From: Halichondria panicea
Taxonomy: Eukaryota; Porifera; Demospongiae; Suberitida; Halichondriidae
Length of the DNA: 64,000 nucleotides
Reading direction: 5' to 3'
Assembly: GCF_963675165.1 (NCBI RefSeq)
Contig: NC_087380.1
Location: 3,897,803-3,961,802, forward strand
The position numbers were made by a program, and so were the translations under genes. Numbering within the stretch: position 1 is the first letter of the stretch; every line of letters starts with the position of its first letter. Below, piece after piece: positions 48,466 to 54,972 of this stretch. Under the pieces are notes generated by a model. The model searched no databases. It was not told where the DNA came from and saw nothing but the letters and a program-made list of their open reading frames with translations.

Positions 48466-51400
48466 TTATATGTACATGTACCTTGTGACGTAAGACATGA
48501 TGCAGTCTAAGAGATGGTCTTGTTTAACGAGGGCCTCTTCCCTTCTCTCCCCGCTAGAGCAGTCAGCCTCACTCTCGGCACAAGCACAGTCCAGTGCATG
48601 GAGCAGCTGCTGTATCGAGACAGCTAGGTTGCTAGGCAGCGAGAAATCCCCACCTTCAGACCTACATAAAAGTCAAATGTATGTCTTGAGACAAACGTCC
48701 ATACAACATGGCTTTATACATGCCCTGATTGCAATGTGTGTGGGAGAGGCTCTTATTGTATTTACATGCACCACGCAGTACGAGTATTATAACCATTGTG
48801 AATATAATAATGAATGCCGAGAGCAAGCAATGGTCAACAGCTAGCAGCTTGGTTACAACAGATATTCATTGGTACCCAGATTGGACGATCTCGTGTTGAA
48901 TTCCACAATTCTCTCGTCTTTGGGTATTCAATAGGTCAAAGCGCACGAAATTCAAATTTCACACTCTTCAGCTCCAATATTTGAGCAAGCCTCTCCAGCC
49001 CATCAAGCCTAATCCACTCATCAGCTTACCTTTTCTCATCCACCTAACAATTAATTCAAGGGGCACACAGATCGCTGAAGATAATTATGGTGATTATGAC
49101 TGTTATTGCCATCCAAGCTGTCTGATATGTAAGTACAACCAGTGGTGTAGGAAGTGGGGTGGCTCCAGGGGCCCTGGAGCCCCCCTTGTTGGAGAGCAAT
49201 GTTTAGCTTGAACTGTTGAGCTAGCTAAAACTGTAAATTATGTGATTATTTCAATGATGGGCTAGGTTTCTAAAGTACAAAGCGATAGATCTACCACAGA
49301 GATAATGATTGATCTGTGAGCCTAGTCTCGAATTCCAGCCTCTTTCAGTCTTTGCAGTTGGGGAGGGCGTGGCCAGCCCCCCCTTGCAAAAAATCTTCCT
49401 ACGCCACTGACAACCTAAGTGACGATAGCTGGAGTTTATTGAGTTAAGATCGTTGATGATTTGCCTGACAACAGACATAATTATAACAATAGATTATATA
49501 ACTGTTGTTACCGACAGGGTATTGTTTTTCACAATTGATGGACATTGAAGTTTGAATTTGTGTAACTTATAATTAATTACTGAGCATTTTACTTACCGGT
49601 TACTCATAGTCAGACAAAATGTGGTGAAATGCGGTATTGGCAATAAATGACAATATTTACGACTTCTACCATAGCACACACTACACACAGAAATGGCTAA
49701 ATAAATGATCAGTTTTCATTTTAATTCACCTGTGAATATTCTTGGCGGCTATGAAGCTGAGAGCACTGTCCGTATTCAATAGGGGAACGAACTGGTGCTG
49801 ACTGAACAGCTCGGGGAGGTTAAAGGTCACTGGCTCGTCGAGGGCCCCTCGCTCTGAGAGCGTCATGGTTCCGATGATGAGAACCTTTGCCCCTGCCGGA
49901 GGAGGCGTGGCTAAGAGGGTGGTGAGGGTGTGGAGGAGGTGATGGGAGGCCTGGAACTGATTGCCAATGGGGACAAACTCAATGAGTCGATGAAGATCGT
50001 CTAGAATAATTACAGCGGAATCTGATCTGTGAGTGAGTGTGTGGGGGGCAGAGGTGAGTGAGTGTGTGGGGGGGGGGCAGAGGTGAGTGAGTGTGTGGGG
50101 GGGTGGGGGCAGAGGTGAGTGAGTGTGTGGGGGGGGGGCAGAGGAGAATGAGTGTGTGGGGGGTGGGGGCAGAGGTGAGTGAGTGTGGGGGGTAGTAGTA
50201 CAAATAATTTACACTCTATATTATTCCGTTTCACCTACAGAATGACTGACGACGTACACTGTACATATATCAACTGTTACTTGTACCTGAAGTGGTCGGT
50301 TACATGCACAATAGTGACGTAGGTTAGACAGGATGCCTCCTGTACGCGTGTACAGTCTTATTCAGTAGCTACATATACATCAGACTTACTTGTAAGCATC
50401 ACTGAAAGACTGATGCAGCATGTCCATCTTGACCATATCAGGCCGACCCACCAGATCGGAGGCTGCCAGGATCTTCACGTACGAGAATTTCCCAATCATT
50501 GCCAAATGTGCTGATATGGCAGTCTTTCCACTCCCCCGTGGCCCATACAACAACAGTGATTGCAGTCTAGTCGTCGAACTCTGTTTCAGTGTGTGAATGA
50601 GGTCTAGAGATTCGTCGATTATCGTGGCGTGAGCGTCACCACATGGTAAATAGCCTTGGGGCAGGTAATACGAGACGACCTGCGTCTCTGAGTGTGTGTA
50701 CGCAGGAAGGACTGAGACTATAGCTCGTTGAAAGTCGGCAACCGTCACAACGATCCCACCAGACTCGGTAATCTGTCCGTCAGTGGATTGGAATCGATCC
50801 AGTGCATACGAAGCAGCTGCCCTCACCACTCCCGCAATCTCAGCTCCACTGAACCGTGAGGTATTAGCAGCCAGTTCGATCAGACTAACATCCGGTGCCA
50901 GCATTTGGGACCCACGCATTGAGCGAGTGTGTATCTCAAATATCTCCTTGCGTCCTTGTTCGTCTGGGAGGTTAACCTCAATTTGAACTTCGAACCTTCC
51001 CGGCCGCAAAAGCGCTGAATCAAGTAGCTCTCTTCTATTGGTCATCCCAATAACCAGTGTGTTGTGGACCTCGTCCAAACCGTCCATTAAAGTAAGAAGT
51101 TGGTTGACAATGGCGTCATAGGCTACACCAGCTGAGGAGCCGTCCGTTTTTCCTCTCGGTTTACAGATGGCGTCAATTTCATCGATTACAATGACATAAA
51201 GGTCGCTGTTTAGACCATGCTTCTTCCAAGCATCTTGGGCCTCTTTGAAGATGGCTCGAAGGTTTCTCTCTGACTCCCCCAAGTACTTGTTGATGATCTC
51301 AGGCCCGTTGATCAGTTGGACCTGTGCGTGTGTCACATGTACATATAATCATCAACAGTGTCATGTACTTCGTTCAACCAATTAACAATCACATTAATTG

Positions 51401-54400: not shown

Positions 54401-54972
54401 ATAGTAATAAATGCGCATGCGCATTAATAAAATTGCTATAATGGAGGGCCGGATAATCGAGGTTCTACTGTACTATAATTATATATATACCCCCAACTTA
54501 ACTATAATCTGTTGATCACCATCCACCCCATTAATTTTGTACTTATAGTATTGGTATTAAAAGGTACATCTTAGCCTTGATATTAATTACATGTACCTGA
54601 CGATAATAATTATTTAAATCCTACGAAGAAGATACAGTACAATGTAGACGACTCATACTGTAAGTTGATCCTCCCCACGTACGTACATACCTCCAGATTG
54701 TCGGCAGGGCACTCTCCTTCATTGTCATCAGGTTGGCTACTCAACGGTGGGGTGGCAGGGGTCTCTGCAATGGGGGGAGGTGTGGGTGTCTGTGGGCCAG
54801 GAGTGGGGTGTATTGGGCTGGTAGGGGCCTCTACAGGCTGGTTGGATGGGGGGTCTCTGTCTCTAGGGCTAGGGGGTGGACTGCTATCCAGCTGAGCGGG
54901 CAGAGGCCGCATCAAAAAGAGTAGACACAGGCCTGTGAAGTAGTAAAGCTTCATCCCTCTTGAGGAGGTCAC
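48466..54972 (-). CDS. Chimeric NSF-type AAA+ ATPase with signal peptide, MRH-like and IPT-like domains
   Basis: Seven exons join in frame: 54972-54691, 54047-53018, 52477-52431, 52110-52030, 51321-50390, 50026-49730 and 48661-48466, about 954 residues. Residues 1-27 look like a signal peptide (h-region [13 protein letters not shown]). A Pro/Ser/Thr-rich segment follows to about 85. Residues ~105-256 resemble a mannose-6-phosphate-receptor-homology domain ([53 protein letters not shown]). Residues ~280-400 resemble an IPT/TIG domain ([25 protein letters not shown]). Then comes the NSF linker ([20 protein letters not shown]), D1 ([38 protein letters not shown]) and D2 ([25 protein letters not shown]). 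D1 keeps its catalytic residues. The NSF N-domain that binds SNAP/SNARE is absent. No membrane segment separates the secretory-type domains from the ATPase. The stop is TAA at 48466. Confidence 0.85.
49138..49412. repeat. Inverted-repeat element, CAGTGGYGTAGGAAG ends
   Basis: CCAGTGGTGTAGGAAGTGGG at the left pairs with AATCTTCCTACGCCACTGA at the right, and GGGGTGGCTCCAGGGG pairs loosely with GGCCAGCCCCCCC. It lies in the last intron of the AAA+ gene. Confidence 0.6.
50030..50192. repeat. Minisatellite abutting a splice acceptor
   Basis: About five copies of a ~30-bp unit, GGCAGAGGTGAGTGAGTGTG followed by a G run. On the transcribed strand this is a C/T/A-rich array directly upstream of the D2 exon acceptor at 50026, and each unit carries a CTCACTCACC-like block. 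Confidence 0.85.
51549..51943. repeat. Inverted-repeat element, TACCGTGTAT ends
   Basis: Starts TACCGTGTATGTTCTTTATC then CGACAG, ends GTCCGATAAATTAGAAGATA then TACGGTA. Internal GTCCGGAATAATTAAAAC and GTCTGGGGTAATTAG blocks are partly repeated. It lies in the AAA+ gene intron after the D1 Walker A exon. Confidence 0.7.
52218..52375. repeat. Inverted-repeat element with AGGGCTGCAT ends
   Basis: AGGGCTGCATTGAGGGGGGG pairs with TCCTGGATGCAGCCCT at the other end, and GGGGTAATTCGCCCCCC recurs inverted as CCCAATTCGCCCCCC. It lies in an AAA+ gene intron. Confidence 0.7.
52485..52692. repeat. (GA)n and (GGGA)n microsatellite at a splice acceptor
   Basis: A run of AG dinucleotides of about 95 bp passes into GGGA tetranucleotides and then a G run. 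On the transcribed minus strand it is a pure pyrimidine tract ending eight bases before the exon that starts at 52477, so it forms the polypyrimidine tract for that exon. The Arg/Glu and Ser/Leu/Pro frames through it are not genes. Confidence 0.95.
54251..54472. mobile_element. Pogo/Tigger-like non-autonomous element
   Basis: Begins CAGTGGAGCCTTGATTATCC then GGATACC, ends GGCCGGATAATCGAGGTTCT then ACTGTA. The ends pair well. The internal block AAACCACGCCTTGATCCACC is shared with 35814-36300. It lies in intron 1 of the AAA+ gene. Confidence 0.75.

What the first reader, a model, noticed from the sequence alone, without database searches (positions are those of the whole stretch)
48466..54972. 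NSF-like two-ring AAA+ ATPase fused behind a signal peptide, MRH-like and IPT-like domains
One exon (54047-53018) reads in one frame from a MRH-like domain, through an IPT/TIG-like domain, into the NSF linker and D1 start, so the fusion does not depend on exon joining. The neighbouring exons continue the frame through D1 and D2 with both Walker A motifs and the D1 Walker B, sensor and arginine-finger region intact. The usual NSF N-domain is replaced. A signal peptide is predicted and no transmembrane segment lies between the secretory-type domains and the ATPase. The product would therefore be luminal or secreted, as torsins are, rather than cytosolic like NSF. I know of no described protein with this architecture.
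Basis: partly seen in the sequence, partly recalled or inferred. Interest (0 to 1): 0.9.

Follow-up and report, generated by a model that had tools for sequence, protein, structure and literature searches.

The report
Secretory-pathway NSF-like ATPase with lectin-fold head
An animal-like genome carries a gene that joins a secretion signal and a sugar-receptor-type domain to the two-ring motor of the vesicle-fusion protein NSF, which should place a protein-pulling machine inside the secretory pathway or outside the cell, where only the weaker torsin ATPases have been described.

Summary
The gene is real at sequence level. Eight exons on the minus strand (54954-47953), with borders chosen by eye at GT-AG sites, join in frame into 957 residues. 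Exon 2 (54047-53018) carries in one uninterrupted frame an MRH domain, a possible IPT-like stretch, the NSF linker and the start of D1. D1 and D2 are NSF-type (best solved-structure match NSF, E 3e-121), with both Walker A and B motifs, the pore loop and the arginine-finger region in place. The MRH domain is supported by a profile from this genome's own CI-MPR-like repeats (22.2 bits; best of 1000 shuffles 12.1). All eight cysteines align, but the sugar-binding Gln is Ile. The IPT call is suggestive only. A separate canonical NSF exists elsewhere in the genome; it is no closer to this gene than human NSF is and shares none of the four intron positions that could be compared. No transmembrane candidate separates MRH from ATPase, so the ATPase should be luminal or secreted. 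A review names torsins as the only AAA+ there; they lack pore loops and an arginine finger. Topology and activity are inferred. No transcript or other species could be checked.

The parts
54691..54954 (-). Exon 1: start ATG, signal-peptide-like N-terminus ([20 protein letters not shown]), Pro-rich linker; aa 1-88
   Evidence: GT donor, phase 0; hydrophobic core; no Pfam family at E up to 1; preceding RIMC1-like gene ends at 55098
53018..54047 (-). Exon 2: MRH domain (aa about 98-251), IPT-like region (aa about 272-397), NSF linker and D1 start FVELGVGGL...RRAFASR (aa 408-431), one open frame
52431..52477 (-). Exon 3: D1, aa 432-447
   Evidence: AG/GT sites, frame kept; aligns with NSF
52030..52110 (-). 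Exon 4: D1 Walker A GPPGSGKT (aa 453-460)
50390..51321 (-). Exon 5: D1 pore loop KYLGESE (486-492), Walker B VIVIDEID (from 517), IGMTNR sensor (565-570), LLRPGRFE arginine-finger region (578-585), D2 Walker A GPRGSGKT (734-741); spans 7 intron positions of the own canonical NSF but has no intron
   Evidence: motif labels recalled and placed by alignment with NSF
49730..50026 (-). Exon 6: D2 Walker [10 protein letters not shown] (790-798) and D2 core
48482..48661 (-). Exon 7: C-terminal part of D2
   Evidence: AG/GT sites, frame kept; lies beyond the NSF match, so placed by frame only
47953..47995 (-). Exon 8: last 13 residues and stop TAG
   Evidence: AG acceptor and frame only; no homology support

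Best explanation
A diverged NSF paralog whose SNAP-binding N-domain has been replaced by a secretory head: signal peptide, Pro-rich stalk, a cysteine-rich MRH domain and possibly an IPT domain. Shown: the fused coding frame, the MRH and NSF homologies, ATPase motifs in place, no transmembrane candidate, a separate canonical NSF. Inferred: the protein enters the ER lumen and stays luminal or is secreted (no KDEL-type ending). It forms a hexamer held by D2 with ATP, as NSF does. Six MRH(-IPT) heads recruit a luminal or extracellular protein target directly or through glycans, and the D1 tyrosine pore loop pulls on it to unfold it or take a complex apart. It would thus work like NSF (complex disassembly) but on the other side of the membrane. 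The MRH head lacks the key Gln, so protein-protein recruitment, as in the CI-MPR repeats that bind no sugar, is more likely than mannose-6-phosphate binding.
For: One-exon continuity of MRH, IPT-like region and NSF linker. NSF is the best match among solved structures, 3.3e-121 over aa 407-852, ahead of a VCP-like ATPase at 7.8e-91 and Transitional endoplasmic reticulum ATPase (p97) at about 1e-81. Catalytic motifs in place. MRH profile 22.2 bits against a best of 12.1 in 1000 Cys-fixed shuffles. Each of the 8 MRH cysteines falls in a column where 4 to 6 of the 6 own repeats have Cys. The first ATG of exon 2 (aa 222) lies inside the MRH domain, so a start exon such as exon 1 is needed. The RIMC1-like gene ends 143 bases before the ATG, leaving little room for another start. 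A separate canonical NSF has seven introns where this gene has none.
Against: No transcript, proteome or second species. The signal peptide is only moderately distinctive (37 of 538 open ATG starts reach its core). Pfam gives no match over its cut-off for MRH or IPT. hhalign against the own repeats covers 51 columns, the C-terminal half, at E 2e-4 but probability 45. AlphaFold without an alignment failed for exon 2 and for the IPT part (mean pLDDT 35.3 and 41.9). The sugar-binding Gln is Ile. D2 is only 39% identical to the own NSF, so D2 function may differ. Cysteine content gives no clear support for an oxidising compartment: 2 in aa 408-840 but 4 more in aa 841-957.
Confidence: 0.6

Rival explanations
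1. Gene-model error: a secretory MRH gene and an NSF-like gene overlap or are read through, and the mature transcripts separate them.
For: No RNA evidence is available; exon borders were chosen by eye; there are in-frame ATGs in exon 2 at aa 222, 296, 306, 332, 340 and 341 (sequence).
Against: MRH and NSF motifs lie in one exon and one frame with no splice needed; the NSF linker follows the IPT-like region within about 45 residues; an NSF part started inside exon 2 would have no N-domain.
Confidence: 0.13
2. The protein is made but the N-terminus is not a signal peptide, and it acts in the cytosol as an NSF variant.
For: The hydrophobic core alone is not rare (37 of 538 open ATG starts); NSF is otherwise cytosolic.
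Against: An MRH domain with all eight cysteines would not be expected to fold in the cytosol (established knowledge of MRH domains); no SNAP-binding N-domain is left to act on SNAREs.
Confidence: 0.12
3. Luminal, but not a motor: a catalytically degraded D1-D2 used as an oligomerisation scaffold for MRH heads.
For: D2 has diverged strongly (39% to own NSF); some AAA+ relatives act as platforms (general knowledge).
Against: Walker A, Walker B, sensor, pore loop and arginine-finger region are kept in D1, and Walker A and B in D2.
Confidence: 0.1
4. A decaying retro-derived copy of NSF that chanced to land behind a secretory exon.
For: Exon 5 lacks all 7 introns that the own NSF has in that span, which a processed copy would explain.
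Against: Frame open over 957 residues, GT-AG at all seven introns of the model, motifs conserved while overall identity has dropped to 54% in D1: decay would not spare motifs.
Confidence: 0.05

Closest known systems
NSF / Sec18 (vesicle-fusing ATPase)
   Same: Linker, D1 and D2 homologous over about 445 residues; D1 54% and D2 38.5% identical to human NSF; Walker motifs, pore loop, arginine-finger region
   Different: SNAP-binding N-domain replaced by signal peptide, MRH and IPT-like region; predicted luminal; the Walker A Cys of human NSF is Ser here (Thr in the own NSF); no shared intron among the four that could be compared with the own NSF
Torsins (torsinA, LAP1/LULL1-activated)
   Same: AAA+ ATPase on the luminal side (predicted here)
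   Different: Torsins are Clp/HSP100-like, lack aromatic pore loops and an arginine finger (PMC5425593, PMC7175109, passages), and have one AAA+ domain (recalled); this protein has both features and two AAA+ domains
CI-MPR (MRH repeats) and other MRH proteins (OS-9, glucosidase II beta; recalled)
   Same: MRH domain with all eight cysteines in register
   Different: Single MRH fused to an ATPase; the conserved Gln after the fourth cysteine is Ile; no transmembrane candidate
p97/Cdc48
   Same: Tandem AAA+ domains, unfoldase-type pore loop
   Different: Lower similarity than NSF; different N-domain; CDC48_N matches lie elsewhere in this genome, on C4 at 6.25-6.26 Mb

Membership tests
NSF/Sec18 family (D1-D2 ATPase) | Best similarity to NSF over linker, D1 and D2 | tested here: met
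   phmmer 3.3e-121 over aa 407-852 against NSF; VCP-like 7.8e-91 and p97 weaker
NSF/Sec18 family (D1-D2 ATPase) | Two nucleotide sites with Walker A and B, D1 pore loop, D1 arginine-finger region | tested here: met
   alignment with own and human NSF; motif labels recalled
NSF/Sec18 family (D1-D2 ATPase) | SNAP-binding N-domain | tested here: not met
   exon 2 matches NSF chains only at the linker and no N-domain family (protein 2); exon 1 matches no family
NSF/Sec18 family (D1-D2 ATPase) | SNARE/SNAP disassembly activity | not testable with these tools
   needs biochemistry
MRH domain | Profile similarity to MRH repeats | tested here: met
   22.2 bits, best of 1000 Cys-fixed shuffles 12.1; Pfam CIMR sub-threshold
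MRH domain | Cysteine pattern | tested here: met
   8 of 8 cysteines align with columns that hold Cys in 4 to 6 of 6 own repeats
MRH domain | Sugar-binding Gln, Arg, Glu and a fourth residue | tested here: not met
   Gln column is Ile, while 5 of 6 own repeats have Gln there; Arg and Glu positions kept by alignment; which columns these are is recalled; fourth residue not settled
IPT/TIG domain | Profile similarity to TIG | tested here: inconclusive
   No Pfam TIG match; own TIG profile 3.8 bits, reached by 28 of 972 and 97 of 989 scored shuffles; post-hoc motif 52 of 200000 shuffles
Torsin | Torsin AAA+ profile | tested here: inconclusive
   Torsin is not among the 25 of 46 families shown for the protein, and the window does not appear among the PF06309 matches of the own genome; D1-D2 is NSF-type
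Luminal/secreted AAA+ ATPase | Signal peptide, no transmembrane segment, luminal location | tested here: inconclusive
   no TM candidate; signal peptide by inspection; location not testable here

The most novel reading that the evidence does not exclude
The first NSF-type, pore-loop-bearing AAA+ unfoldase inside the secretory pathway or outside the cell: an NSF ring topologically moved to the lumen, with an MRH(-IPT) head choosing glycoprotein or receptor complexes to pull apart with luminal or extracellular ATP. It may fill a role held by torsins elsewhere: an exon-wise search found no torsin match over the cut-off in this genome, though that does not show absence.
Probability: 0.45. Interest if true: 0.88.

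Novelty: new variant of a known kind. Interest (0 to 1): 0.74.

Why it matters
A 2020 review states that torsins are the only AAA+ proteins in the ER and nuclear envelope network (PMC7175109, abstract), and torsins lack the pore loops and arginine finger used for threading. A luminal NSF ring with both would show that a cytosolic SNARE-disassembly motor can be re-aimed at luminal or extracellular targets by swapping its head. It would also give a natural system for asking whether luminal ATP can power protein threading.

Tried and rejected
AlphaFold on exon 2 and on the IPT-like part without an alignment gave unusable models. The Foldseek search with the second gave no match better than E 0.61, so structure is not used as evidence.

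A search for relatives of exon 2 in viral contigs found none: 7 stretches matched a pattern, none was a relative. The one scan of prokaryote genomes used exon 5, not exon 2: 28 stretches matched, 4 were relatives, all in archaeal records (three Thermoplasmata/Thermoplasmatota, one Micrarchaeota). No eukaryote genome other than this one could be searched, so the spread of the architecture is unknown.

A torsin search in the own genome gave one match under the cut-off (E 0.005), which on reading looks like a myosin P-loop exon (GLSGAGKTFT; identified from recall). A second torsin profile found nothing and its controls were silent, so torsin absence is not shown. The own NSF N-domain was not found by the CDC48_N profile (3 matches, all on C4); one exon piece matches solved NSF-N weakly (E 0.18).

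I rejected a recent duplication from the own NSF: D1 is 53.7% identical to it and 54.1% to human NSF, while those two are 76.4% identical. I dropped a cysteine-depletion argument: the 2 cysteines in aa 408-840 are followed by 4 in aa 841-957, and the compared spans differ.

Literature: 'N-ethylmaleimide sensitive factor' with 'MRH domain' is in 0 papers. Other combinations gave 2 papers, 2, 110 with 10 listed, 426 with 6 listed and 1926 with 10 listed; nothing in the listings that I saw describes this architecture. Titles and abstracts only were seen there, and only this open library is covered.

Full report
Observation. On the minus strand of 54954-47953 eight exons, with borders that I chose by eye at AG and GT sites, join in frame to a 957-residue protein. 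Exon 2, 54047-53018, is one open frame of 343 codons.

The ATPase part. Against all solved structures the protein matches NSF over residues 407-852 with E 3.3e-121, Sec18 next (2e-117), then a VCP-like ATPase (7.8e-91) and p97 (about 1e-81). The alignment with human NSF crosses the joins of exons 2/3, 3/4, 4/5 and 5/6 without a gap at any of them. Exons 7 and 8 lie beyond that match and rest on frame and splice sites. Pfam finds AAA at 449-591 and an AAA lid. Present are D1 Walker A GPPGSGKT 453-460, pore loop KYLGESE 486-492, Walker B VIVIDEID from 517, IGMTNR 565-570, LLRPGRFE 578-585, and in D2 Walker A GPRGSGKT 734-741 and Walker B VIILDD from 790 (motif names recalled, placed by the alignment). 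Identity to the genome's own NSF is 132 of 246 positions in D1 (53.7%) and 58 of 148 in D2 (39.2%); to human NSF 54.1% and 38.5%; own and human NSF share 76.4% and 68.2%.

The head. Pfam gives only a sub-threshold CIMR match in exon 2 (E 0.021). I therefore built a profile from six MRH repeats of this genome's own CI-MPR-like gene on C16. The fusion's MRH region (aa 98-251) scores 22.2 bits and the full protein 16.9. Of 1000 shuffles with cysteines fixed, 979 were scored, the best at 12.1; the reversed sequence scores 1.5. hhalign gives E 2e-4 over 51 columns of the C-terminal half, but a probability of only 45. All eight cysteines fall in columns where 4 to 6 of the 6 repeats have Cys; the Gln that follows the fourth cysteine in 5 of the 6 repeats is Ile. 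A paper on CI-MPR counts Gln, Arg and Glu among four essential carbohydrate-binding residues of its domain 9, and four sugar-binding domains among fifteen (PMC7481795, passages seen). So the domain is supported and classical sugar binding is doubtful. The IPT assignment stays open: no Pfam TIG match, only a sub-threshold bacterial BigA_beta one (E 0.027). A profile of 12 own TIG domains scores 3.8 bits, reached by 28 of 972 plain and 97 of 989 constrained scored shuffles, 1000 made of each. A motif chosen after looking is present in 7 of the 12 own domains, in the fusion, and in 52 of 200000 shuffles.

Topology. The first 20 residues look like a signal peptide. The core hydrophobicity is reached by 37 of 538 open ATG starts in the window and by 0 of 897 other stretches of the protein. 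No 19-residue stretch reaches a usual transmembrane value (best mean 1.42; the usual threshold of about 1.6 is recalled). The first ATG of exon 2 lies inside the MRH domain (aa 222), so an upstream start exon is required. The RIMC1-like gene on the same strand ends at 55098, 143 bases before the ATG. An MRH domain with eight cysteines needs an oxidising lumen, and nothing after it looks able to cross the membrane; hence the ATPase should lie on the same side. This step is inference.

Origin. Canonical NSF exons lie on C6 at about 3,096,200-3,099,800, with a second copy about 96 kb away that is 93-97% identical over the three longest aligned pieces. I placed ten introns in the D1-D2 part of the first copy, nine with AG and GT checked. 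None coincides with the four fusion introns that could be compared; the last two fusion introns lie beyond the aligned part. Seven of the ten fall inside exon 5 of the fusion, which has none. That fits a processed or long-separated NSF copy joined to a secretory exon, not a recent tandem duplicate. The MRH-IPT part has no other match in the genome at E up to 10 by single-sequence search.

Comparison. A review states that torsins are the only AAA+ proteins in the ER and nuclear envelope network (PMC7175109, abstract and passages seen). Torsins lack aromatic pore loops and an arginine finger (same paper and PMC5425593, passages seen). This protein keeps both. By its ATPase it belongs to the NSF family; without the SNAP-binding domain it should not act as NSF does on SNAREs. 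It works, I think, like NSF but on luminal or extracellular targets.

Limits. No RNA, no second eukaryote and no usable structure model were obtained.

Noticed in passing
45075-47623 (+): Ras-family GTPase in at least three open frames, convergent to the fusion gene; its last frame ends in a strongly hydrophobic tail ([19 protein letters not shown]) in place of a prenylation motif, like a tail-anchored Rab.
   Followed up: partly
55098-56895 (-): Homolog of RIMC1 (RAB7A-interacting MON1-CCZ1 complex subunit 1), directly upstream on the same strand.
   Followed up: partly
42957-44759 (+): Single open frame of 600 codons with an F-box and a weak, sub-threshold leucine-rich-repeat match.
   Followed up: no
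about 52486-52697: Long CT/CCCT simple repeat in the intron right before exon 3.
   Followed up: no
L018, L019 (own genome C6 about 3.10 and 3.19 Mb): Two canonical NSF copies, 93-97% identical over the three longest aligned pieces, about 96 kb apart: recent duplicates or an uncollapsed haplotype.
   Followed up: partly
own genome C6:2383235-2384083 and C12:4.5-5.6 Mb: TIG domains inside an open frame given as 10065 codons, and a large cluster of TIG-containing frames on C12.
   Followed up: no
own genome C16:2954876-2962070: CI-MPR-like gene with ten MRH matches over the cut-off.
   Followed up: partly
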